Shown here: positions 2,274 through 63,491 of the stretch, one piece after another
Layout: each line of letters starts with the position of its first letter
Numbering within the stretch: position 1 is the first letter of the stretch
NCBI GenBank assembly: GCA_902801475.1
Contig: CADCIO010000002.1
Span: forward strand, 1 to 64,000
Direction of reading: 5' to 3'
Source of the DNA: an uncultured Bacteroidales bacterium
Lineage (GTDB): Bacteria > Bacteroidota > Bacteroidia > Bacteroidales > Bacteroidaceae
Length of the DNA: 64,000 nucleotides
The notes under the pieces: generated by a model
The model's input: the letters and a program-made list of their open reading frames with translations, nothing else
The model's database searches: none
What the model was told of the DNA's origin: nothing
Translations under genes and position numbers: made by a program

Positions 2274-2308
2274 AGGTTATAGGTTATGGGTTATAGGTTA
2301 TAGATAAT
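2274..2308 (+). repeat. Period-7 tandem array, unit AGGTTAT
   Basis: Five heptamers: AGGTTAT, AGGTTAT, GGGTTAT, AGGTTAT, AGATAAT. They fill the gap between the two parvulin genes. This belongs to the period-7 arrays discussed in the findings. Confidence 0.85.
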
Positions 2309-2323
2309 AGATTGACGCAGGAT

Positions 2324-3680: not shown

Positions 3681-3764
3681 AAGTGTGAGGTTATAGGTTA
3701 TGGGTTATTGGTTATAGATTAGAGGTAAGAGGTGAGAGATTAGAGGTAAGAAGTAAGAGGTTGG
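3681..3764 (+). repeat. Period-7 tandem array, 12 heptamers
   Basis: Twelve consecutive 7-mers with no slip in phase: AAGTGTG, AGGTTAT twice, GGGTTAT, TGGTTAT, then AGATTAG, AGGTAAG, AGGTGAG, AGATTAG, AGGTAAG, AAGTAAG and AGGTTGG. The unit changes mid-array from the AGGTTAT type to the AGGTAAG type. It ends one base before the likely TTG start of the next gene. Confidence 0.9.
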
Positions 3765-16999: not shown

Positions 17000-17017
17000 A
17001 TGAACATGACCGAATCC

Positions 17018-17107
17018 ATTCATGATACATGATTAGGTCGATTCATGATACATGATTAGGTCAATTCATGATACATGATTAGGTCAATTCATGATACATG
17101 ATTGAAT
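17018..17107 (+). repeat. 23-bp tandem repeat, about four copies
   Basis: Exact 23-base spacing at 17041, 17064 and 17087, with a copy before and degenerate copies after (to about 17140). The unit begins ATTCATGATACATGATTAGG. Each unit contains TCATG-ata-CATGA, a short inverted repeat. No spacers occur, so it is not a CRISPR array. It lies between the DUF1573 gene and meaB. Confidence 0.9.
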
Positions 17108-17183
17108 TCATTCATGAACATGACCAAATCCATTCATGATGATGACAGGTTAAAGTTAAGATTATAGTTAAGATTCATACAAT

Positions 17184-36264: not shown

Positions 36265-37434
36265 ATGAAACATCTCTCTCTCTTGACGCTTATCATCACC
36301 GCCCTTTCTCTGGTGGCATGTAAGCAGCGGACAATAGAAAACAGACCACAAACAACCGATTCAGCGGAGGCGATGTCCTTGGACTACGCCCAAGGCTTTC
36401 AAGTGAGAACGCTGGAGAACGGGGTGAAACTTGTTGACGTGGCTGATCCTCAGACAGACGAGGACAAGATGCCAGTGAGCTATCATTTTGCCTTGGTGCC
36501 ACGTCAAACTGTCAACTCTCAACTGTCAACTGTCAATGATCAAATTCCCGAAGGTTACACGAAGGTGGAAGTGCCCGTGGAGCGCACCTTGGTGATGACC
36601 ATGTTGCAACTCTCCAACTTCACGGCATTGGGCGCGTTGGATGTGGTAAAAGGCATCACCGGCACCAAGAACCTCTTCAACGAAGACATCCACCAACGTG
36701 TGGCAGACGGGCGCATCGTGAAGATAGGCATGGAAGGCAATTTCGACACCGAGCTGATCTTGGCCGCCAATCCAGAGGTGATCTTCATCTCTCCCTTCAA
36801 ACGTGGCGGTTACGATGCCATCAAGGAAACGGGAGTGACCCTCATTCCGCATTTAGGATATAAGGAACCACACCCTCTGGGACAGGCTGAGTGGATTAAA
36901 TATGTGGGTTTGTTCATTGGCAAGGAGAAGGAGGCTGATGCCCTCTTCGATAGGATTAAAAAACGCTACCTTGCCTTGGCTGAGAAGGTGAAGAAAGAGA
37001 CCACCGACTGTCCCACGGTCTTCAGTGGTGAGATGCATGGCGGCAACTGGTTTGCCGTGGGTGGAAAGAACCACCTGGCACAGCTCTTCCGTGATGCTGG
37101 CGCAGAATATATTTTGAAGGATGACAATACGGGCGGTGTGCCCATTGAGTATGAGCAGATGTATGCTACGGCTGCCAATGCTGACTATTGGCGTATCTTG
37201 AATAGTTATCCTGGCGATTTCTCCTACGAGGCATTGAAGTCGTCGGAACCTCGCAACGAACTCTTCAAGGCGTTCAAGGAGAAGCACGTGATTTACTGCA
37301 ACATGAAGCAGACGCCTTACTATGAAAGTTCGCCTGTAGAGCCAGACGTGTTGCTGGCAGATTTGGTCGCCATCTTCCATCCCGAATTGATGGATGAAGG
37401 TTACCAACCACGCTATTATCAATTGCTGAAATAA
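36265..37434 (+). CDS. BtuF-like corrinoid-binding lipoprotein, copy 2
   Basis: This 389-residue protein has the lipobox S-L-V-A-C (Cys19). The binding-protein fold shows V-I-F-I-S-P-F-K-R-G-G-Y near 170, W-I-K-Y-V-G-L-F-I-G-K-E-K near 207 and F-S-G-E-M-H-G-G-N-W-F near 253. It is paralogous to the gene at 34151. An in-frame period-7 array at 36503-36545 encodes Q-T-V-N-S-Q-L-S-T-V-N-D in the N-terminal region, making an odd low-complexity insertion. It pairs with the second BtuC gene 25 bases on. Confidence 0.84.
   Translation: MKHLSLLTLIITALSLVACKQRTIENRPQTTDSAEAMSLDYAQGFQVRTLENGVKLVDVADPQTDEDKMPVSYHFALVPRQTVNSQLSTVNDQIPEGYTKVEVPVERTLVMTMLQLSNFTALGALDVVKGITGTKNLFNEDIHQRVADGRIVKIGMEGNFDTELILAANPEVIFISPFKRGGYDAIKETGVTLIPHLGYKEPHPLGQAEWIKYVGLFIGKEKEADALFDRIKKRYLALAEKVKKETTDCPTVFSGEMHGGNWFAVGGKNHLAQLFRDAGAEYILKDDNTGGVPIEYEQMYATAANADYWRILNSYPGDFSYEALKSSEPRNELFKAFKEKHVIYCNMKQTPYYESSPVEPDVLLADLVAIFHPELMDEGYQPRYYQLLK
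36503..36545 (+). repeat. Period-7 array inside the second btuF-like gene
   Basis: Units GTCAACT, CTCAACT, GTCAACT, GTCAATG, ATCAAAT after one 8-base unit. It is open in the coding frame. Confidence 0.85.
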
Positions 37435-39566: not shown

Positions 39567-41351
39567 TTAATGGATGCCGCCAGCGTCGTCTATCAGAAGG
39601 ATGGTGAGGTCGCCGTGTGGCAGGAGGGGGGCGCAATGCGTCAGGCAATGGCGGATGACGGTGCGGCAAAAGGTTTCTATCTGTTCGGAGGGGATGATGC
39701 CCCAGAGTTCGCGTGCCAAGGTGATGCTTGCTACTTGTTCGATGACCTTGGTGTCACAGCCTGATTCTTCTAACATCTGGATGATGAACGCTTTGTTCAT
39801 CGTCTGTTTTTTGCTGTGGGTGTCGAGGTGTCCCTCTGCCAGTTTCACCGCCTTGCCGAGCATGATGCCGAGGGTGATGCGGGGGATGTCGAGTTCGTTG
39901 GCGATTTGCAAGGTGGCTCCGATGGCATTGCCGTATTCCACAAATGCCTGCTGGGGAAGGTTGGGGTAGTGGGTCTGTAGGAATCCCTCGCTCTTCATGC
40001 CGCTGTGCAGCACGACGCGGTCTGTGCCGCTTGCCTTCGCCACCTCCATGCACTTGCGGATGCTCTCGATGAAAGCCTCTTCGCTGAAAGGTTTCACGAT
40101 GCCTGACACGCCGATGATGCTGATGCCTCCCTCGATGCCGAGACGGGGATTGAAGGTGCGGCGGGCGATGTCTTCGCCTTGGGGGACGGAGATGGTAATT
40201 GACAGTTGACAGTTGACAGTTGACAGTTTCTCTAGATTATGGCGAATCATTTGGCGGGGCGCTTTATTGATGGCAGGCTCGCCAACAGGATAGTCGAAGC
40301 CGGGGAGCGTGAACTTGCCCACGCCTTCGCCACCACAGATTGCAAACTGGTCGGCTTGCCTCACATGAGCCCTCACTTCGATGCCATCCGTCACGTCGGG
40401 GTCATCGCCTGCTTGCTTGATGCAGTAGGCGTGGTCTTCTCCATATCCGACGGGGACGGGGATGGTCTCGCCATTGGGCAGGATGACGGGCACCTCGTCG
40501 GGTGTCTCCCCTGTCAACAAACGGGTGGCGGCTGCGATGGCTGCCGCTGTGGCACAGGTGCCGGTGGTCAGTCCGCTGTGGAGGGGATAGAATTCGGGGA
40601 GCAGTTTTTCCACCATTCTCCGGAGACCGTGCTCGCCGTTGACGCGGTGGAAGATGGCGGGTGTGACGGGACGTCTGATGGCATACATCTTCATGCCTAA
40701 TGCCCTTGCAGCCTCCACTTTCTCCGTGAAACCTCCTGAGTGTCCGCTTTCTTTCAGCAGGATGGCATCGGCACGGACGGGAATCTCTTTGGCGTCTTCA
40801 TAGAAGCACAGTTGCTCGTCGGTGGCTCCCTGCTGATGAGCCAGCTGAATGCTGCTCTCGCGGTTCAGGATGCGGTAATAGACCTTCACGCCTTGTTCTT
40901 CCAAAGGCTTGAGTTTGGCGATGCTCTGCACACCGGTGGTGGCAAGGAGGGTGGAAAGTTGACAGTTGACAGTTGACAGTTGACAGTTTTTGGGGGTGAG
41001 GTGTGAGATGAGGGAGGCATAGGAATCAATCCATGTGATGTCAGGGTCTCTCTCCGTAAAGATGCGTTCGAAGCGTATGGCAGGGATGCCAAGCTGTTCG
41101 GATACTTCAGCCACGGTCCGATGCAGCACCTCGGCAAAAGGATGGGCAGCATCGACCAAGAGTCTGATGTCATGTTCCTGGCAGAACGATGTCATCGTCT
41201 CCTTATCCATGGCGCCATCGATGCGGATGCCATGATGGAGCGTCACCTCCTGCTCGCCCGTCTTCGTGCTGTAGTAGAACGTGTTGCCAGCCTCCTCAAG
41301 CGCCTCTATCGCCTTGCGCCCCTCGGTCGTGCCACCAAAAACTAATACCAT
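39567..41351 (-). CDS. Fused cobalt-precorrin-6A reductase (CobK/CbiJ) and cobalt-precorrin-5B C1-methyltransferase (CbiD)
   Basis: This 594-residue fusion has an N-terminal CobK/CbiJ part (about 1-240; F-G-G-T-T-E-G-R-K near 5, D-A-A-H-P-F-A near 66). The C-terminal CbiD part runs about 255-594 (S-G-L-T-T-G-T-C-A-T-A-A-A, V-S-G-I-V-K-P-F-S-E-E). Both act in anaerobic corrin-ring synthesis. Two in-frame heptamer arrays encode N-C-Q-L-S-T-V-N-C-Q-L-S-T in the CobK part and L-S-T-V-N-C-Q-L-S in the CbiD part. The ATG at 41351 fits the CobK N-terminus. It has its own promoter divergent from the GH30 gene. Confidence 0.9.
   Translation of the reverse strand: MVLVFGGTTEGRKAIEALEEAGNTFYYSTKTGEQEVTLHHGIRIDGAMDKETMTSFCQEHDIRLLVDAAHPFAEVLHRTVAEVSEQLGIPAIRFERIFTERDPDITWIDSYASLISHLTPKNCQLSTVNCQLSTLLATTGVQSIAKLKPLEEQGVKVYYRILNRESSIQLAHQQGATDEQLCFYEDAKEIPVRADAILLKESGHSGGFTEKVEAARALGMKMYAIRRPVTPAIFHRVNGEHGLRRMVEKLLPEFYPLHSGLTTGTCATAAAIAAATRLLTGETPDEVPVILPNGETIPVPVGYGEDHAYCIKQAGDDPDVTDGIEVRAHVRQADQFAICGGEGVGKFTLPGFDYPVGEPAINKAPRQMIRHNLEKLSTVNCQLSITISVPQGEDIARRTFNPRLGIEGGISIIGVSGIVKPFSEEAFIESIRKCMEVAKASGTDRVVLHSGMKSEGFLQTHYPNLPQQAFVEYGNAIGATLQIANELDIPRITLGIMLGKAVKLAEGHLDTHSKKQTMNKAFIIQMLEESGCDTKVIEQVASITLARELWGIIPSEQIETFCRTVIRHCLTHCAPLLPHGDLTILLIDDAGGIH
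40197..40231 (-). repeat. Period-7 array inside the CbiD domain
   Basis: Plus strand AATTGAC, then AGTTGAC three times, then AGTTTCT. The coding strand carries GTCAACT units, the orientation free of stop codons. Confidence 0.88.
40957..40991 (-). repeat. Period-7 array inside the CobK domain
   Basis: Four exact AGTTGAC units (plus strand) then AGTTTTT. The coding strand carries GTCAACT. It lies in frame between the S-H-L-T-P-K and L-L-A-T-T-G-V segments. Confidence 0.9.
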
Positions 41352-41402
41352 ATTATATATATATATGAAGGAATGGGAATGGACGGATTGGTTGTCCGAA
41401 GG

Positions 41403-41410
41403 CAAAGGTA
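41403..41410 (-). promoter_or_regulatory. -7 element for the CobK-CbiD gene
   Basis: TACCTTTG on the minus strand, 51 bases before the ATG. It is divergent from the GH30 promoter at 41454. Confidence 0.55.
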
Positions 41411-41453
41411 CGGATTTTTTACCGAACATGCCCTCCGTTTGATAAAAAATGTG

Positions 41454-41461
41454 TACCTTTG
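41454..41461 (+). promoter_or_regulatory. -7 element for the GH30 gene
   Basis: TACCTTTG, 23 bases before the ATG at 41485. Confidence 0.55.
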
Positions 41462-41484
41462 TGCCGACAAATCTATCAGAGACT

Positions 41485-43926
41485 ATGAACAAAAGACTTC
41501 TATCATTGATTGTGGCCGTGGCTATCGTTATGACGGCTTCGGCTCAAACCAGTTTCAGCAAGGCCACCACGCTGTATGTGATGCATAGCAGTGGAAAGCA
41601 CCTTGAGATGGGCAGTGACAATGGCGGATGGATTGAGACCTCCACGAAGGCGAATCCTCAGCAGATGACCATCACGCCCGTGGGCAATGGCTACTACACC
41701 ATCCAGGTGGCAGGGAAAACACAATATCTGTCGAAAACGGGTTCGTGGAACTCCACCTTCGGGACCAGCGCATCGGCTGACGAGGCAAAATGGAGCATCG
41801 AGCCAGGTTCGGGCCAATACGTCAAACTGCGCTGCAAGGCGAACAACAGATATTTGGGCACCGACAGCAACGACCCTCATCAGAAGGTTTTCACCGACAA
41901 GGATGGTGCGGATATTAAGCACCTGTGGTACTTCAGCGAAGATGTGATGCAAGCACCGCCTGTGGCCACTTTCGACTATATGGTCAGTCCGCAGGTGGTC
42001 CGCCAACACTTTGACGGTTGGGGCGTGTCGCTCTGCTGGTGGGCAGGTCAGTGCGGCAAGTGGTCAGACCAGCATATTGATGAGATAGTGGATTGGATGG
42101 TCAGCCCGACAGGTCTGAACTACTCCCATTTCCGTTATAACATCGGTGGCGGCGACGATCCTGCAAATGCACATTGCGACCAGCATCACATGGGACGCGG
42201 CAAGGGATTGCGTGCCGAGATGGAGGGATTCAAGGACTTCAGCGGCGATGACTATCATTGGGACCGCGATGCAGCCCAGCGCAAGATTATGTTGAAGATT
42301 AAGGAGAAACGTCCTGATGCCGTCTTCGAGGCCTTCAGCAATTCATGTCCTTACTATATGACCTATAGTGGCTGCGTGAGCGGGAATACGGATGGGGGCA
42401 AGGACAATCTGAAGCCTGAGTATTACGAGGAGTTCGCCCACTATCTCGTCGATGTGTGCAAGCACTATAAGGAAGAATACGGTATAGAATTTAAGACACT
42501 CGAACCTTTCAACGAGTCGGTCACCAACTTCTGGTATGCCAATGGCCCGCAGGAGGGTTGCCACTTCGACTATCAGTCTCAGATTAAGTTTGTCCGTGTC
42601 TTGGAACCCATCCTGCGTGCATCGGGTCTCAACACGGTCATCTCAGCATCAGACGAAACCAACATCGGACTCAGCGTCGAGGGCTTTAAACAATTCAAGA
42701 ATGCTGGTGTGCTGTCGAAAGTGGGACAATGGAACACGCATACCTATTCAGGCAATAATGCCGACCGTGCCCGTCTGGCACTGTTGGCTCATCAGTCTAA
42801 GATGCCACTGTGGATGAGCGAGACAGGTTCGGGTGGCAACGGTATTGGCGGAAACCTCGCATTGGCTCAGCGCCTCTTCGACGATATGCGATACATCCAA
42901 CCCGAAGCCTGGATTGATTGGCAGTATATGGAGGAGGCCAACGACCAGTGGTGTACGATTCAGGGCAGTTTTGCCAACCAGACGTATAAGAAGGTGAAGA
43001 ACTACTATGTGCGTCAGCATTGTACACGCTTCATCCGTCGCGGTTACGACATCATTACTTCGCCCTGCTCCCAATCGCTCTGTGCCGTCAATGCCAACAG
43101 GGACACGTTAGTGGTGGTGCTGCTGAACGAAGGAGCCAAGGCCATGCACAACATCGACCTCTCGCTCTTTACCGAACTGCCTGTGCTCAGCAATATCAAA
43201 GCATATCGCACATCGGCCAGTGAGAATCTGCTCAGCACTAAAAACGGTATCAGTCTCAATGGCAACACACTCAGTGTAGCAATGCCTGCACAGTCCATTG
43301 TCACACTCGTCATCCCTGCCCGCAGTGCAGCCATCCAACCTGAAGAACTGCTGCGTGATGGAGGCGAGTACATCATCATCCCTCGTCATGAGACTACACG
43401 CGCCATCACGGCGACAGGCAGTAAAGTGACGATAGAGGATCTGGAATACAGCGATGCCCAGCGTTGGACATTGGCAGATAAGGGCAATGGGAAGTATGGG
43501 TTGCAGAATGCTCTCGGATTGCGACTTACGGCTCATCGCAACAGCAACAGTTCCTCGCTGACGGCTCAGAAGGGACAAGCCAGCGAACAAGATTTCTATA
43601 TTGACGCTGTTGACTATCCATTCTACAAGATTTTGGCAAGCAACGGCCGCAGTCATGGCTTTGACCTGAGCAACGAATCGACGGCAGCAGGCACCTCCGT
43701 CACTATCTGGCAGTATCAGGACAGCAATCCTACACCCATCCATCGGCAGTGGATGCTTGTTCCGCTCACTGCGTCTGCAGAGACCGACGCCATCGAAGAT
43801 GTTCAGCAGACTTCTGACATTACTAAAGACGAGTCCGTCTATGACCTCTCGGGCCGTCGCATCGACAAAGCAAACATGCAGAAGGGAGTCTATATCATCG
43901 GTGGACGCAAAGTTGTGATGCCATGA
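41485..43926 (+). CDS. Secreted GH30-family glycoside hydrolase with ricin-like and T9SS tail domains
   Basis: This 813-residue protein has a signal peptide ending A-S-A-Q. An N-terminal beta-trefoil-like domain (about 22-150) precedes a GH30 catalytic barrel (about 165-590). The proton donor is Glu344 in E-P-F-N-E-S and the nucleophile Glu446 in W-M-S-E-T-G-S. The G-W-G-V-S-L-C-W-W start resembles endo-beta-1,6-galactanases. A ricin-type domain runs about 620-770. The end (Y-D-L-S-G-R-R-I then G-V-Y-I-I-G-G-R-K-V) looks like a T9SS sorting tail, which fits porQ at 18 kb. It is unrelated to the B12 genes around it. Confidence 0.88.
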   Translation: MNKRLLSLIVAVAIVMTASAQTSFSKATTLYVMHSSGKHLEMGSDNGGWIETSTKANPQQMTITPVGNGYYTIQVAGKTQYLSKTGSWNSTFGTSASADEAKWSIEPGSGQYVKLRCKANNRYLGTDSNDPHQKVFTDKDGADIKHLWYFSEDVMQAPPVATFDYMVSPQVVRQHFDGWGVSLCWWAGQCGKWSDQHIDEIVDWMVSPTGLNYSHFRYNIGGGDDPANAHCDQHHMGRGKGLRAEMEGFKDFSGDDYHWDRDAAQRKIMLKIKEKRPDAVFEAFSNSCPYYMTYSGCVSGNTDGGKDNLKPEYYEEFAHYLVDVCKHYKEEYGIEFKTLEPFNESVTNFWYANGPQEGCHFDYQSQIKFVRVLEPILRASGLNTVISASDETNIGLSVEGFKQFKNAGVLSKVGQWNTHTYSGNNADRARLALLAHQSKMPLWMSETGSGGNGIGGNLALAQRLFDDMRYIQPEAWIDWQYMEEANDQWCTIQGSFANQTYKKVKNYYVRQHCTRFIRRGYDIITSPCSQSLCAVNANRDTLVVVLLNEGAKAMHNIDLSLFTELPVLSNIKAYRTSASENLLSTKNGISLNGNTLSVAMPAQSIVTLVIPARSAAIQPEELLRDGGEYIIIPRHETTRAITATGSKVTIEDLEYSDAQRWTLADKGNGKYGLQNALGLRLTAHRNSNSSSLTAQKGQASEQDFYIDAVDYPFYKILASNGRSHGFDLSNESTAAGTSVTIWQYQDSNPTPIHRQWMLVPLTASAETDAIEDVQQTSDITKDESVYDLSGRRIDKANMQKGVYIIGGRKVVMP

Positions 43927-43930
43927 TAGC

Positions 43931-43992
43931 GAATACTATCTTCACCCGATTTGAATAGTATCTTCACCCGTTTTGAATAGTATCTTCACCCG
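43931..43992. repeat. 22-bp tandem repeat, three copies
   Basis: GAATA(C/G)TATCTTCACCCG recurs at 43931, 43953 and 43975 with exact 22-base spacing. The stop of the minus-strand CbiG-CobM gene lies inside it, so the repeat encodes the last residues of that protein (T-G-E-D-T-I-Q-N-G). Confidence 0.88.
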
Positions 43993-45787
43993 TCCGGAAA
44001 AGATGGGTGAAGTTTTTGTTGTACAGTTCTGAGAAACCGTGGCGGTTGTCGATGGCTTCGCCTACGACGAGCATGGTGGTCAGGGTCAGGTGATTGTCAT
44101 GTACAATCTTTGCCAAATCCTTCAATTGCCCCCGATAAATCTTCTGGTCAGGCCATGTGAGGTGATAGCAAGCAGCGACAGGTGTGTCGGCCGGATATTC
44201 CTGCAACAGTTCCTTCTGGACATCATCCACGATGGCTGCACTCAAGAAGATGCACATCGTCGATTGGCTCTTGGCGAGCAGGTGCAGCTGTTCCTTTTCC
44301 GGCATAGGAGTGCGCCCCTCGCCTCGTGTAAGGATGATGGTCTGTGTACGTTCTGGAATGGTGAACTGACTTCTCAACTCAGCAGCAGCAGCCAAGAACG
44401 AAGAGATGCCAGGGGTGATGTGGTAGGACATCTGGTGCTGGTCGAAGAAAGCCATCTGCTCCTGAATGGCTCCAAAGATGCAGGGATCGCCCGTGTGCAG
44501 ACGCACGATGAAATGTCCTTGGTCGTAATGCTCCTTCATCAGGGCACATTGCTCTTCGAGGTTCATGTCGGCAGACGAGCGAACAACGGCACCCGGCTTG
44601 TGGCAGTCAGTCAGTTCCTTCGGCACCAGAGAGCCAGCATAGAGAATAAGGTCAGCCTTCTCCAGCATCTTCCGTCCACGCACAGACACGAGGTCAGGGT
44701 CGCCAGGACCAGCACCGACTATCTCGATGTGGCCGATGGAAGAGTTTAGAGTTGAGGGTTTAGAGTTTAGAGCGCGAAGATGCTGCTCGTCGATGGCAAG
44801 GGCTGCTGTCCAGTTCTTGCCCTTCACCTTGGGGATGATGAGCTTTCCATGATTGGAACCCAAGATGGCGGCTGCCTCGCAGACACTGGGAGTGCCCACA
44901 TGCTTCGCGACGGTCGTGCTGGGATTGGGCACATCGACTTCCGCTAGTTCTTCGGCCGTGAAGAATACCACTTCTTCCTCATACACATCTCTCAATTCTT
45001 CCACGAATGGCTCGTCCGCCTTTACGTCGATGGTACAGTATTTCTTGACACAGGGAAGAACGCCACGATCAGCAAACGCTTGGTCTATCTCATCGTATAT
45101 CTGTTCGTAATCGTCTGGATGATGTGCCAGTCCAAAGCCAATCGTCCCCACCATCGGCACAAAATGCAGCACCAGCATATTGTCAGGATAGGGTAGTTTG
45201 AACGGCGACACGATGATGAGGAGTTTGTACTGGCTGGCAGCGGCCTCCTTGATGTCGTTGATGAGGGTGACATGCTCGGGAAGCGTCTTCTCCAAATAGT
45301 CGGTGCCCTCATCTCTTACCTGTAAAAGCAGGGCGGTGGGTTGGCGATTGACAAAGGCGAAGATGCAGTCATTCATGTCCTCAATGTCGCTGGCAACAGG
45401 CCAATCGAAACGCTTCTCCAAGGTGTCGAGCGCCCACAAACCGGCGTTGTCGCTTTGGGTGGTGATGACGGGATTGGCTCCGAGAATGGCAGCCACTTCT
45501 TTTGTCAGGTCGTTGGCTCCTCCCACATGACCAGACAGCACGGAAACGACATGCTTCCCCATACTGTCGATGCAAACGACGGCAGGGTCGGTGTGCTTGT
45601 CTTTCATATATGGAGCGATCGTGCGTACACAGATGCCCATGGCACCGATGAAGATGAAGGCATCAAAGTCGTTCCACTGATCCCCTACATCTGTGCGCTG
45701 TATGCTTTTGGCACTCAACTGACGCTGGAGCATGAGTGCGATGTCCTTGCCAGCCTCGTTGATTTGTATGACTGCTATTTGCTGCAT
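43964..45787 (-). CDS. Fused CbiG and precorrin-4 C11-methyltransferase (CobM/CbiF)
   Basis: This 607-residue fusion has an N-terminal CbiG part (about 1-345; G-A-M-G-I-C-V-R near 48, S-G-H-V-G-G-A-N-D-L near 85). The C-terminal CobM/CbiF SAM methyltransferase runs about 358-607 (V-G-A-G-P-G-D-P-D-L, R-L-H-T-G-D-P, L-T-R-G-E-G). CbiG opens the lactone of cobalt-precorrin-5A; CbiF makes that intermediate, so the two steps are consecutive. The junction between the domains (L-N-S-K-P-S-T-L-N-S-S) is encoded by a period-7 array. It overlaps the upstream cbiET gene by 13 bases and is the last gene of the riboswitch-2 operon. Confidence 0.9.
   Translation of the reverse strand: MQQIAVIQINEAGKDIALMLQRQLSAKSIQRTDVGDQWNDFDAFIFIGAMGICVRTIAPYMKDKHTDPAVVCIDSMGKHVVSVLSGHVGGANDLTKEVAAILGANPVITTQSDNAGLWALDTLEKRFDWPVASDIEDMNDCIFAFVNRQPTALLLQVRDEGTDYLEKTLPEHVTLINDIKEAAASQYKLLIIVSPFKLPYPDNMLVLHFVPMVGTIGFGLAHHPDDYEQIYDEIDQAFADRGVLPCVKKYCTIDVKADEPFVEELRDVYEEEVVFFTAEELAEVDVPNPSTTVAKHVGTPSVCEAAAILGSNHGKLIIPKVKGKNWTAALAIDEQHLRALNSKPSTLNSSIGHIEIVGAGPGDPDLVSVRGRKMLEKADLILYAGSLVPKELTDCHKPGAVVRSSADMNLEEQCALMKEHYDQGHFIVRLHTGDPCIFGAIQEQMAFFDQHQMSYHITPGISSFLAAAAELRSQFTIPERTQTIILTRGEGRTPMPEKEQLHLLAKSQSTMCIFLSAAIVDDVQKELLQEYPADTPVAACYHLTWPDQKIYRGQLKDLAKIVHDNHLTLTTMLVVGEAIDNRHGFSELYNKNFTHLFRTGEDTIQNG
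44744..44771 (-). repeat. Period-7 array at the CbiG-CobM junction
   Basis: Plus strand GTTTAGA, GTTGAGG, GTTTAGA, GTTTAGA. A pure TCTAAAC array on the coding strand would contain TAA, but the one variant unit removes it. Confidence 0.85.
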
Positions 45788-46995
45788 GTTAGTATCTCAA
45801 TAGGATGATTGTCGTTCAATATGATTTTGGTCGGTGCATCTTGTTTCAGGCCAAGTTCTTCGCATGCTTCATCCCAAAGTTGGTGACTATCGGTCAAGAC
45901 CTTGGGAGCCTTCACACTATTCATCACGATACACCCATCATCGGTCAGGACGGTCAGCACCTTTTTAATGATCTCCTTCAGTTGACCGCCATGACCACCA
46001 ATGAAGACGGCATCGGGACGAGGTAAAGATGCAACATCTGCTTCCAGGAAGTCGCCGATGTGCACATTGATGACCGGGGCGCCAAACTTTCTAGCATTCT
46101 CTAGGATAATGGCTTCGCATTCGGGACGAATCTCGAAAGCTTCGATGTGGAGGTGTGGGAACTGCAAGCGTGCTTCGATGGAGATGCTTCCTGTACAAAA
46201 ACCGATGTCCCAAAGCACGTGTCGATGGGGCAAATTAAGGGCTTGCAGCGTGAGCAGGCGGATGGGCATCTTGGTGATCATCTTCTCCCTGCCATCGAGG
46301 AGGGAAAACGCTGAGTCGGGGATGCCGAAGGGTCGTATACGCTGACTTGTCTTTTGCAGAATGATGCAGTTGGGATGGCTGTAGATGGTTTGCTCATCAT
46401 AGCGGCTTACCCGTTCCAATTCTTCGTTTCCCAGATTCTCTCCTACCATCATGAGGTAGTTCGTATAACCGTATTCCACCATTCGCTGATGGATAGCGTG
46501 TGGTGTCTTGATTCGATCTGTCAGCACACCTATCATCGATTCGCCGTTGATCAGTGCTTCATCGAGTTTCTGCCAGGGACGACCTGTGAGCGAAACGACG
46601 TGCATGTCGTGGTAGGCTACAGACATCCGATGCGCCAGCATTTGCAGGGAGTTGAAGGTGGGGAAGACCTTGATCTCTGCATCGGGCATCTTGCGTTGGA
46701 TGGTGTTGGCAAAGCCGAAGAATAAGGGGTCGCCAGAAGCGAAGACAATAATCTCAGAGGTGAGAGGTGAGAGGTTAGAGGTGAGAGAAAGGTATTGCTC
46801 AAAGACGGCATCGAGGGGGACTGTGATGTCTATCCATTCGGCACCGTCGGGCAGGAATGGAACAACAATCTCGTGGTGGCGTTTGCCTCCAGAGAACACC
46901 TTTCCGTTTCTGATGACCTCCAAGACTTCTGGAGGAAAGAAAGGCTGCGGGTTGTCCGATATACCAATAACAACGAATCTAATCATAACTTTCAA
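45775..46995 (-). CDS. Precorrin-6Y C5,15-methyltransferase, CobL-type (CbiE-CbiT)
   Basis: This 406-residue protein has a CbiE part (about 1-210; V-V-I-G-I-S-D-N near 7, F-A-S-G-D-P-L-F-F-G near 87) and a CbiT part (about 225-406; W-D-I-G-F-C-T-G-S-I-S-I-E-A-R, a SAM-binding loop). Together they methylate C5 and C15 and remove the acetate side chain. A heptamer array (46755-46789) encodes L-T-S-N-L-S-P-L-T-S just before the S-G-D-P motif. An alternative ATG lies at 46986. It starts 4 bases after the CobJ-CbiC stop. Confidence 0.92.
   Translation of the reverse strand: MKVMIRFVVIGISDNPQPFFPPEVLEVIRNGKVFSGGKRHHEIVVPFLPDGAEWIDITVPLDAVFEQYLSLTSNLSPLTSEIIVFASGDPLFFGFANTIQRKMPDAEIKVFPTFNSLQMLAHRMSVAYHDMHVVSLTGRPWQKLDEALINGESMIGVLTDRIKTPHAIHQRMVEYGYTNYLMMVGENLGNEELERVSRYDEQTIYSHPNCIILQKTSQRIRPFGIPDSAFSLLDGREKMITKMPIRLLTLQALNLPHRHVLWDIGFCTGSISIEARLQFPHLHIEAFEIRPECEAIILENARKFGAPVINVHIGDFLEADVASLPRPDAVFIGGHGGQLKEIIKKVLTVLTDDGCIVMNSVKAPKVLTDSHQLWDEACEELGLKQDAPTKIILNDNHPIEILTCSK
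46755..46789 (-). repeat. Period-7 array inside the cbiE part
   Basis: Plus strand CAGAGGT, GAGAGGT, GAGAGGT, TAGAGGT, GAGAGAA. The coding strand reads ACCTCTC units, free of stops; the reverse would contain TGA and TAG. Confidence 0.88.
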
Positions 46996-46999
46996 CCAT

Positions 47000-48418
47000 C
47001 TACAAATCGCGTCCAGGTTTCAGTTGTTCTGCATCATCAAAGGTGAGGATAGCGTTGCACAAGGTGGCAGCCAGATTGCTACCTCCTTTGCGTCCCTCGA
47101 TGATGATTTTGGGAATGTCTTTGAAGGGTTTCACCATGTGTTTTGACTCCTTCACATGCACGAATCCCACAGGTGCGGCGATGATGCCAGCAGGATGTGC
47201 CTTGCCCTTGCGGATCAGGTCGCAGAGTTCCATGAGGGCTGTGGGTGCATTGCCGAAGGCGAAGAGAGCATCTGGATGTTCCTCCACAGCGAGACGGATG
47301 CCGGCTTGGGTGCGTGTGATGCCCTTTTCTGCAGCCATTTCAGCCACACGAACATCGGAAAGATAGCACTTGGCTTCCACTCCAAGACGTGTGAGTGCAC
47401 CTTTGCGGATGCCGCTGGTGACCATCGTGACATCGGTGATGATAGTGGTCAACTCGCCCTTCTTTACCTTATTATATAATGTGGCAACAGCTCCGTCGTC
47501 AGTATGGAGCAGATTCTCCATGTCGAAGTCGGCTGTGGTGTGAATGGCATGAAGTAGTGCCCACTTGTGGTCAAGCGGATAGTTCTTGCGCTTCAACTCA
47601 CCCTCGATGGTTCTGAACGACTCCATCATAATCAATTGTCCCTTCTTCTCACCATTTCCCTCACCTCTCACCTCTAACTTCTCACCTCTATAATACCCTC
47701 GTGGCGTGATCATCTTGTCGTTCCACTCGTAAGATTGGGAATTGCCGATCAGAATCACCGTGAACATATCGACCGCTTCGGGGTCAAACTCGCCCAGGGT
47801 GGTGATGGTCACTTCCTGTTCTGGCCGTCCTGCCTGTCTGACAAAACCAATGGGCGTGTCAGCAGCACGTTCTTGCAAGAAGATCTCCTGCAATCGGTAA
47901 AGCTGCCAATATCTGCCGTTTGACTTGGGATTATATACTGCCGTCACAAAGTCGCCCATAGCTGCCGCTTTGATTCTCCGCTCGATGACGTCCCAAGGAG
48001 TCATCAAGTCGCTTAAGGAGATGACGCAGAAGTCATGACCCACAGGCGCACCTAACAGGGATGCTGCCTTTTGGAATGCCGAAATGCCTGGCAGAGCCTC
48101 CACAACGATGTCACTATTCCGCTGCTTCTTCATCTCATATATCAGGGGGGTCATCCCATATATGCCAGCATCGCCAGAGGAGATGACCACGACGGTCTTG
48201 TCTTGTTCTGCCAGTTGAAAGGCTTGTTCTGCACGTTCGCGCTCATGCTTCATGCCCGTGTCGATGCATTCGCACCCTTCTTTCAGATAAGGTGTGATGA
48301 ATTGAAAATAGTATTTGTAGCCAACGACCACATCAGCCTCACCCACAGCCTTGATGACTGCCGGCGTGATGTCTTCTGGGCTACCTGGTCCGATGCCTGC
48401 AACGATAATCTTTTTCAT
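47000..48418 (-). CDS. Fused precorrin-3B C17-methyltransferase (CobJ/CbiH) and precorrin-8X methylmutase (CbiC/CobH)
   Basis: This 472-residue fusion has a CobJ/CbiH part (about 1-245; A-G-I-G-P-G-S-P-E-D near 7, S-S-G-D-A-G-I-Y-G near 81). The CbiC part runs about 262-472 (H-T-T-A-D-F, T-D-V-T-M-V-T-S-G, G-N-A-P-T-A-L). The first contracts the ring; the second moves a methyl group to form hydrogenobyrinate-type product. The linker E-K-L-E-V-R-G-E-G-N-G-E-K-K-G is encoded by a period-7 array. An internal promoter at 48426 places the ATG almost at the transcript start. Confidence 0.92.
   Translation of the reverse strand: MKKIIVAGIGPGSPEDITPAVIKAVGEADVVVGYKYYFQFITPYLKEGCECIDTGMKHERERAEQAFQLAEQDKTVVVISSGDAGIYGMTPLIYEMKKQRNSDIVVEALPGISAFQKAASLLGAPVGHDFCVISLSDLMTPWDVIERRIKAAAMGDFVTAVYNPKSNGRYWQLYRLQEIFLQERAADTPIGFVRQAGRPEQEVTITTLGEFDPEAVDMFTVILIGNSQSYEWNDKMITPRGYYRGEKLEVRGEGNGEKKGQLIMMESFRTIEGELKRKNYPLDHKWALLHAIHTTADFDMENLLHTDDGAVATLYNKVKKGELTTIITDVTMVTSGIRKGALTRLGVEAKCYLSDVRVAEMAAEKGITRTQAGIRLAVEEHPDALFAFGNAPTALMELCDLIRKGKAHPAGIIAAPVGFVHVKESKHMVKPFKDIPKIIIEGRKGGSNLAATLCNAILTFDDAEQLKPGRDL
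47661..47688 (-). repeat. Period-7 array at the CobJ-CbiC junction
   Basis: Plus strand TCACCTC, TCACCTC, TAACTTC, TCACCTC. In this orientation a longer pure array would reach a TGA in frame; the short length keeps it open. Confidence 0.85.
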
Positions 48419-53943: not shown

Positions 53944-54017
53944 ACGTTAGTTTGTTAGTGTGATGGTTTGTTAGTTTGTTAGGGACTAATCCACTAATTC
54001 ACTAATCACTAATCCAC
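53944..54017 (-). repeat. Octamer repeats in the riboswitch-2 leader
   Basis: Plus strand TTAGTTTG, TTAGTGTG, ATGGTTTG, TTAGTTTG at period 8, followed by TAATCCAC-type units in the opposite sense. It lies between the riboswitch and the receptor ATG and could fold on itself. Confidence 0.65.
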
Positions 54018-54023
54018 TACTTT

Positions 54024-54175
54024 GGCAGGTCTTCTGACTTTCCCCCAGTCCGCTCGCCTTCCCGATTCCTCAGTGGCTTTTGATGAACAGACGTTGACAA
54101 AAGGGGATTACAGCTGCAGGTACAGCTCCGGATTTGCACCGGATTCCCTTGCATCGATTTGCTCGATTACCAATT
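54024..54175 (-). promoter_or_regulatory. Cobalamin riboswitch 2
   Basis: On the minus strand: AAGGGAATCCGGTGCAAATC, GCTGTACCTGCAGCTGTAA, the exact B12 box AAAGCCACTGAGG, GGGAAGGCGAGC, and AGTCAGAAGACCTGCC. All core elements of the class are in order. It precedes the receptor-cbiK-receptor-cobJ/cbiC-cbiET-cbiG/cobM run, which it should repress when cobalamin is plentiful. Confidence 0.96.
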
Positions 54176-54182
54176 TCGGTGG

Positions 54183-54190
54183 CAAAGATA
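54183..54190 (-). promoter_or_regulatory. -7 element for the riboswitch-2 operon
   Basis: TATCTTTG on the minus strand immediately upstream of the riboswitch. Confidence 0.65.
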
Positions 54191-54280: not shown

Positions 54281-54308
54281 TATCAACTGTCAACTGTCAA
54301 CTGTCAAC
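54281..54308 (+). repeat. Period-7 array, unit TGTCAAC
   Basis: TATCAAC then TGTCAAC three times, ending ten bases before the cobB -7 element. Confidence 0.88.
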
Positions 54309-63395: not shown

Positions 63396-63403
63396 TTTTC
63401 TCT

Positions 63404-63487
63404 CTTACTTCTTACCTCTAACCTCTTACCTCTAACCTCTAACCTCTTACTTCTAACCTCTTACCTCTTACCTCTAACCTCTAACCT
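63404..63487. repeat. Period-7 tandem array, 12 heptamers
   Basis: CTTACTT, CTTACCT, CTAACCT, CTTACCT, CTAACCT twice, CTTACTT, CTAACCT, CTTACCT twice, CTAACCT twice: twelve units with no slip. It lies 4 bases past the DUF4250 stop. Confidence 0.92.
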
Positions 63488-63491
63488 CTTC

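What the first reader, a model, noticed from the sequence alone, without database searches (positions are those of the whole stretch)
44744..47688. Period-7 arrays form the linkers of fused corrin enzymes
The CbiG-CobM junction (44744-44771) and the CobJ-CbiC junction (47661-47688) are encoded by heptamer arrays. Similar arrays fill true intergenic gaps here (2274, 3681, 23268). A simple path is that an intergenic array between two adjacent genes lost its stop and became a linker, or that linkers tolerate array insertion. Either way the arrays may help build gene fusions.
Basis: partly seen in the sequence, partly recalled or inferred. Interest (0 to 1): 0.68.

Follow-up and report, generated by a model that had tools for sequence, protein, structure and literature searches.

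The report
Heptamer repeats invade vitamin-B12 enzyme loops
Short 7-base repeat arrays that are scattered over Prevotella-type genomes have been inserted, without breaking the reading frame, into the same few loops and linkers of vitamin-B12-making enzymes again and again in different species; the enzyme fusions themselves are older than the repeats, so the repeats did not build them.

Summary
The two arrays are real and sit at the CbiG|CobM and CobJ|CbiC junctions, in frame. All 81 CbiG-CobM orthologues found are one open frame. 53 of 81 have a short, uninterrupted linker, only the window passes the heptamer threshold, and sister L009 carries a decayed copy; close relatives L011/L012 are fused with no insert. 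The fusion also exists, array-free, in other Bacteroidales families. The arrays are therefore later insertions into existing linkers. They are not junction-specific: of 84 species-level arrays in four corrin ORFs, 67 lie inside domains. They occupy 14 sites (random placement gives 67); two loops (CobL ~70, CbiD ~363) are occupied in 24 and 18 species, mostly with different heptamers and almost randomly on the tree. In other species a G+C-rich inverted repeat occupies the same sites. The arrays are a genome-wide class: related TCA-containing units, lengths peaking at 31-32 nt, phased ends, one variable unit position. Length differs between close relatives by whole units (21 nt in coding copies); one MAG is frameshifted exactly at an array. 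This is a new variant of known bacterial heptamer repeats, behaving like in-frame selfish repeats. How new arrays arise is unresolved.

The parts
43964..45787 (-). CbiG-CobM fusion ORF, 607 aa
   Evidence: Pfam CbiG_N/mid/C and TP_methylase; NCBIfam TIGR01465 over cut-off; fused in all 81 orthologues
44741..44772 (-). heptamer array encoding the CbiG|CobM linker (ALNSKPSTLNS)
   Evidence: TRF; 30 nt net longer than the L017 linker with 84.6% identical flanks; decayed orthologous copy in L009
47000..48418 (-). CobJ-CbiC fusion ORF, 472 aa
   Evidence: TIGR01466 (CobJ) and PF02570 (CbiC) over cut-off
47660..47689 (-). degenerate heptamer array encoding the CobJ|CbiC linker (RGEKLEVRGE)
   Evidence: TRF; L009/L010 have a short linker, L011/L012/L051 a palindromic insert at the same place
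45775..46995 (-). CobL (CbiE-CbiT), 406 aa
   Evidence: TIGR02467 and TIGR02469 over cut-off
46756..46787 (-). heptamer array in a helix-strand loop inside the CbiE domain
   Evidence: TRF; same loop carries arrays in 24 of 77 species; AlphaFold places it between helix 60-73 and strand 80-85, local pLDDT about 64
39567..41492 (-). CobK-CbiD fusion ORF, 641 aa
   Evidence: PF02571 at 49-283 and PF01888 at 305-554
40199..40228 (-). perfect heptamer array (AACTGTC) in a loop inside CbiD
   Evidence: TRF; same site has arrays in 18 of 70 species
40957..40988 (-). perfect heptamer array (AACTGTC), 32 nt, in a loop inside CobK
   Evidence: TRF; only the window passes threshold 12 here
36507..36536 (+). 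heptamer array inside a periplasmic-binding-protein-like ORF 36265-37434, upstream of its Pfam domain
2274..2312 (+). intergenic heptamer array (AGGTTAT)
3688..3758 (+). intergenic heptamer array
54283..54308 (+). heptamer array (TCAACTG) near the start of a small ORF
63403..63489 (.). long heptamer array (TCTTACC/TCTAACC), about 12.7 copies

Best explanation
The arrays belong to a dispersed, genome-wide class of short heptamer repeats in Prevotella-type Bacteroidales. They were inserted into genes that were already fused. Shown: the fusions are older than the arrays; coding copies keep the frame; arrays recur at a few homologous sites in different species with different heptamers; the sites are interdomain linkers and intradomain loops alike; array length differs between close relatives by whole units. 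Inferred: new arrays arise all over the genome by repeat duplication (replication slippage), probably helped by copying from other arrays of the same genome. Selection then removes every coding insertion except those that are a multiple of 3 long, free of stops (TCA strand, not TGA strand, in the reading direction) and placed in a tolerant loop. The linkers of fused enzymes are simply some of these tolerant places. The peptide encoded there is probably a neutral flexible filler.
For: (1) Fusion older than array: 81/81 CbiG-CobM orthologues are one frame; at that junction 53 have a short linker without an insert, 16 an inverted-repeat insert, 11 other longer sequence (including the decayed copy in L009), 1 a heptamer array; at CobJ|CbiC 46/71 short, 8 heptamer, 12 inverted repeat. 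The window clade shows array, decayed array, palindrome and bare linker at CbiG|CobM in window, L009, L010, L011/L012. Fusion without array in other families. (2) Not junction-specific: 84 species-level arrays in four ORFs form 14 clusters against 67 (minimum 54) for random placement; 67 of 84 are inside domains. Outside the cluster 9 of 13 checked coding arrays lie within Pfam domains, among them NRPS condensation and adenylation domains, SpoIIE and PD-(D/E)XK. (3) Recurrent gain: presence on the tree is nearly random (for example CobL loop 24/77, 17 changes against 20.6 for shuffled labels) and units at one site differ between species. (4) Frame filter: TCA strand in 81 and TGA strand in 5 interior coding arrays. 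(5) In-place change by units: L011/L012 123 vs 102 nt (coding, 3 units) and 81 vs 53 nt (intergenic, 4 units); L018/L022 53 vs 32 nt (coding, 3 units). (6) Shared units: within-locus pairs identical in 9.9% against 2.5% between loci and 0.17% for random heptamers, 0/2000 permutations.
Against: Pure local slippage does not predict the shared unit grammar, the length mode at 31-32 nt, the phased ends, or the single variable unit position. The four corrin ORFs carry more arrays per base than other genes (17.0 vs 4.4 per 100 kb of CDS), which tolerance alone may or may not explain. Most relatives are MAGs; arrays also occur in the isolate Prevotella ruminicola KHT3 (L083).
Confidence: 0.85

Rival explanations
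1. One reading: an intergenic array between adjacent genes lost its stop and became the linker, so arrays help to create fusions.
For: Arrays do occur in intergenic gaps of this genome, and 17 of 84 corrin arrays lie between domains.
Against: Fused genes without arrays in most relatives and in other families; the array is inserted into a continuous linker in the window relative to L017. The two loci with separate genes have no array there. 67 of 84 arrays are inside domains.
Confidence: 0.03
2. Phase variation: the unit is not a multiple of 3, so gain or loss of one unit switches corrin enzymes off and on, and the arrays are contingency loci.
For: Array length differs by whole units between near relatives. 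In L074 the CobK-CbiD frame breaks exactly at an array that is 28 nt (4 units) shorter than in L054.
Against: Only 1 frameshifted case among about 84 array-bearing sites, and it is in a MAG, where assembly could collapse an array. Arrays are short (mode about 4.5 units), and the two coding length differences between near relatives are 21 nt, which keeps the frame.
Confidence: 0.07
3. A mobile-element or templated process (reverse transcriptase or REP-type transposase) writes a discrete element of about 32 nt made of five copies of a 4-mer separated by 3-nt spacers.
For: Length mode 31-32 nt in coding and intergenic copies; start and end phases strongly non-uniform (family TCAAYTN: start p 4e-12, end p 9e-9); variation concentrated at one unit position (22% against 0.5%); unit sharing within loci; copy number from 0 to about 540 pattern hits among 15 congeneric genomes.
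Against: No RVT_1 match in the 98.7% complete genome and no Y1 transposase match in it or in several other repeat-rich genomes. Different units coexist in one genome. The variable-base patterns are diverse, not one copied sequence.
Confidence: 0.12

Closest known systems
Heptameric simple sequence repeats (long SSRs) of prokaryotes, e.g. (GGGANTN)n in Xanthomonas and GGGGA(C/T)T in Nostoc (PMC4692102)
   Same: 7-nt unit, dispersed over the genome, most arrays about four units, some unit positions fixed and others variable
   Different: Unit is TCA-containing, not G-tract based; repeats within ORFs are reported as under-represented there, whereas about half of the arrays here lie inside ORFs, in frame, and recur at homologous sites
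TAACTGA direct repeats of marine Beggiatoaceae, Cyanobacteria and a few Bacteroidetes (MacGregor 2015, PMC4679880)
   Same: Heptamer direct repeats, also found in some Bacteroidetes; copies inside ORFs mostly in the stop-free orientation
   Different: There one unit, mainly just upstream of start codons, related heptamers rare; here a family of related units and many copies inside conserved enzymes
Rickettsia palindromic elements (RPE), in-frame repeats in protein genes (from general knowledge; Rickettsia papers naming palindromic elements found, not read)
   Same: Selfish-type repeat inserted in frame into tolerant sites of housekeeping genes
   Different: RPEs are longer palindromic elements; these are short heptamer arrays. 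The G+C-rich inverted repeat at the same sites in other Prevotella species is closer to an RPE
DRT10, telomerase-like bacterial reverse transcriptase that makes tandem-repeat DNA (PMC12632851)
   Same: Short tandem repeats with an A-B-A' template logic in which a 4-nt stretch re-anneals
   Different: Product not known to enter the chromosome; no RVT_1 match in this genome

Membership tests
Heptameric simple sequence repeat arrays | period 7, more than chance, many dispersed copies | tested here: met
   239 lag-7 segments in 1.60 Mb against 54 for lag 8 and 0-17 for other lags apart from the multiple 14; 65 in 464 kb of the own genome
Heptameric simple sequence repeat arrays | unit-number variation between near relatives | tested here: met
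   21-, 28- and 14-nt differences with flanks 94-100% identical
TAACTGA repeats (MacGregor) | unit TAACTGA, mostly directly upstream of start codons | tested here: not met
   units are TCAAYTN, TCACTYN, TNACCTC and others; about half of the arrays inside CDS
RPE-like in-frame repeat insertions | insertion into conserved ORFs at tolerant sites with the frame kept, absent from the orthologue | tested here: met
RPE-like in-frame repeat insertions | palindromic element forming a hairpin | tested here: not met
   direct heptamer repeats; the palindromic elements at the same sites are a separate class
Phase-variable contingency loci | on/off variants by unit change within a population | tested here: inconclusive
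   one frameshifted MAG orthologue; no population data
DRT10-type templated repeats | resident reverse transcriptase with a template RNA | tested here: not met
   no RVT_1 match in G000; template RNA not searched

The most novel reading that the evidence does not exclude
The heptamer arrays are discrete elements of about 32 nt, W-(xSS-W)x4 with defined ends and one free position, generated and spread by an unknown enzymatic process that differs more than 100-fold in activity between congeneric Prevotella species and that, with a second palindromic class, repeatedly rewrites the same protein loops.
Probability: 0.15. Interest if true: 0.8.

Novelty: new variant of a known kind. Interest (0 to 1): 0.5.

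Why it matters
It corrects a tempting story (repeats building gene fusions) and shows something else: in one enzyme family two unrelated repeat classes colonise the same few protein positions again and again across species. That gives a natural insertion-tolerance map of corrin enzymes, a source of rapid linker change, and a possible route to reversible gene loss by unit slippage. The sharp length mode and the phased ends make the origin of bacterial heptamer repeats, noted since 2007 but unexplained, directly testable in a culturable genus.

Tried and rejected
Array-built fusion: rejected by fused relatives without arrays. Corrin-cluster speciality: rejected as exclusive, since arrays are genome-wide, although the cluster is enriched. 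Reverse transcriptase (RVT_1) and REP-associated transposase (Y1_Tnp) as resident agents: no match in this genome. AlphaFold of CbiG-CobM gave a poor model (mean pLDDT 46.8) and was not used. Literature searches found no report of coding heptamer arrays in Prevotella; the library holds open-access papers only.

Full report
What is there. The cluster 39567-48418 (minus strand) encodes CobK-CbiD, CbiG-CobM, CobL (CbiE-CbiT) and CobJ-CbiC. Five period-7 arrays lie inside these ORFs: two at the junctions named in the finding (44741-44772, 47660-47689) and three inside domains (40199-40228 CbiD, 40957-40988 CobK, 46756-46787 CbiE). Chance is excluded for the strong ones and is unlikely for the two junction arrays (0-3 of 1000 controls). 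In the window lag 7 gives 11 strong segments, against 0-1 for other lags except its multiple 14, and 0 in Markov controls.

Fusion versus array. 80 relatives, mostly rumen Prevotella-type MAGs plus a few isolates, were fetched. All 81 CbiG-CobM orthologues, window included, are one open frame. At the junction 53 of 81 have the short linker, 16 an inverted-repeat insert, 11 other longer sequence and one, the window, a heptamer array above threshold. In the window's own clade L009 has the same array in decayed form, L010 palindromic inserts, and L011 and L012 nothing; at CobJ|CbiC the window has the array, L009 and L010 a short linker, L011, L012 and L051 palindromic inserts. With flanks 84.6% identical to L017 the window carries 30 nt net insertion. 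Fused CbiG-CobM is also found in another genus of the family and in three other families of the order; no heptamer array is found in those loci, and the three linkers read are short. A genome with separate genes has them in the reverse order with no array (G057), and L050 has a separate cbiD with no array at its start. The fusions are therefore older than the arrays.

Where arrays go. Mapped on alignments, 84 species-level arrays in the four ORFs fall into 14 clusters; random placement gives 67, minimum 54. The main sites are a loop of CbiE (24 species), a loop of CbiD (18), the C-terminal part of CobK (14), the CbiE|CbiT linker (11) and the CobJ|CbiC linker (5). Seventeen are between domains and 67 inside domains. 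CbiG-CobM had none in the 80 relatives. The CbiE loop is predicted between a helix and a strand with lowered confidence. Presence is almost random on a tree of the same proteins, with 10 to 17 changes at each of the four richest sites (5 at CobJ|CbiC) and counts at or just below those of shuffled labels; at one site different species carry different units, although near neighbours sometimes share them. In other species the same sites hold a G+C-rich inverted repeat encoding peptides such as LPSLREGQGVG or TPLHTGRGRGWV. Outside the cluster arrays lie inside NRPS, SpoIIE, altronate dehydratase, PD-(D/E)XK and DUF4924 domains, and between the two domains of an RNase HI.

The class. In 1.60 Mb from 81 species lag 7 gives 239 segments, lag 8 gives 54, and other lags 0-17 apart from the multiple 14; 167 of 239 units contain TCA/TGA. 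About half are in CDS interiors, 81 with TCA and 5 with TGA on the coding strand, as expected if in-frame stops are removed. Pairs within one locus of up to about 22 kb (64 kb for the window) share the unit in 9.9% against 2.5% between loci (0 of 2000 permutations; 0.17% for random heptamers). Lengths peak at 31-32 nt in coding and intergenic copies. In family TCAAYTN arrays start most often at unit position 3 and end at position 6 (p 4e-12 and 9e-9), and position 7 varies in 22% of cells against 0.5% at position 2; in family TNACCTC position 2 varies in 27% and 25 of 38 end at position 1. Thus the common form is five copies of a 4-mer separated by 3-nt spacers whose first base is free. End phases and the variable position are partly linked, because an array ending just before a variable base is slightly easier to call; this does not explain the start phases. 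Pattern counts range from 0 to 541 among 15 congeneric genomes and are low in most of the order; the pattern covers only part of the unit range.

Change in place. Near relatives differ by whole units: L011/L012 by 21 nt in a coding array and 28 nt in an intergenic one, L018/L022 by 21 nt in the CobJ|CbiC linker, L031/L073 by 14 nt between genes. In L074 the CobK-CbiD frame breaks exactly at an array 28 nt shorter than that of L054. It may be real or an assembly collapse.

Mechanism. Shown: insertion into existing genes, frame filter, recurrence at tolerant sites, unit-wise length change. Inferred: arrays arise by repeat duplication all over the genome, probably with copying between loci, and survive in genes only where tolerated. 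Not explained: the shared unit grammar, the length mode and the phased ends. No resident RVT_1 or Y1 transposase was found.

Known context. Heptamer repeats are the commonest long SSR class in many bacterial genomes and were linked to polymerase slippage, as cited in PMC4679880 and PMC4692102. In-frame repeats in genes are known from Rickettsia (general knowledge; papers located but not read). The present case is a new variant: heptamer arrays that repeatedly enter the same loops and linkers of conserved enzymes.

Noticed in passing
L010, L011, L012, L051, L054, L066 and others, at the CbiG|CobM, CobJ|CbiC, CbiE and CbiD sites: A G+C-rich inverted repeat (about 30-40 nt, CCCCTCC..GGAGGGG..GGGGGTGGG type), encoding peptides such as PSLREGQGVG or TPLHTGRGRGWV, is inserted in frame at the same protein sites as the heptamer arrays in other species.
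   Followed up: partly
genus genomes G079-G092: Heptamer-array load differs more than 100-fold between congeneric species (0 to 541 pattern hits); the cause is unknown.
   Followed up: partly
L085:12560-12690: A third kind of insert at the CobK C-terminal site: tandem copies of a roughly 42-nt palindromic unit (SSPAVGCAAAVH) kept in frame.
   Followed up: no
window 53946-54019 and 54007-54189 (-): Period-8 arrays (GTTAGTTT; ACTAATCC) lie beside and overlap the edge of a cobalamin riboswitch; period 8 is the second most frequent period in the relatives.
   Followed up: no
G000:C2:121400-127800: A cluster of TCATTTN arrays, several next to a GCGNAGCG motif, in both orientations; looks like a local repeat family.
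   Followed up: no
window 17013-17140: 23-nt tandem repeat, 5.6 copies (AATCCATTCATGATACATGATTA).
   Followed up: no
four corrin ORFs in L009-L088: Coding arrays are about four times denser in these ORFs than in the other CDS of the same loci (17.0 vs 4.4 per 100 kb); the reason is unknown.
   Followed up: partly
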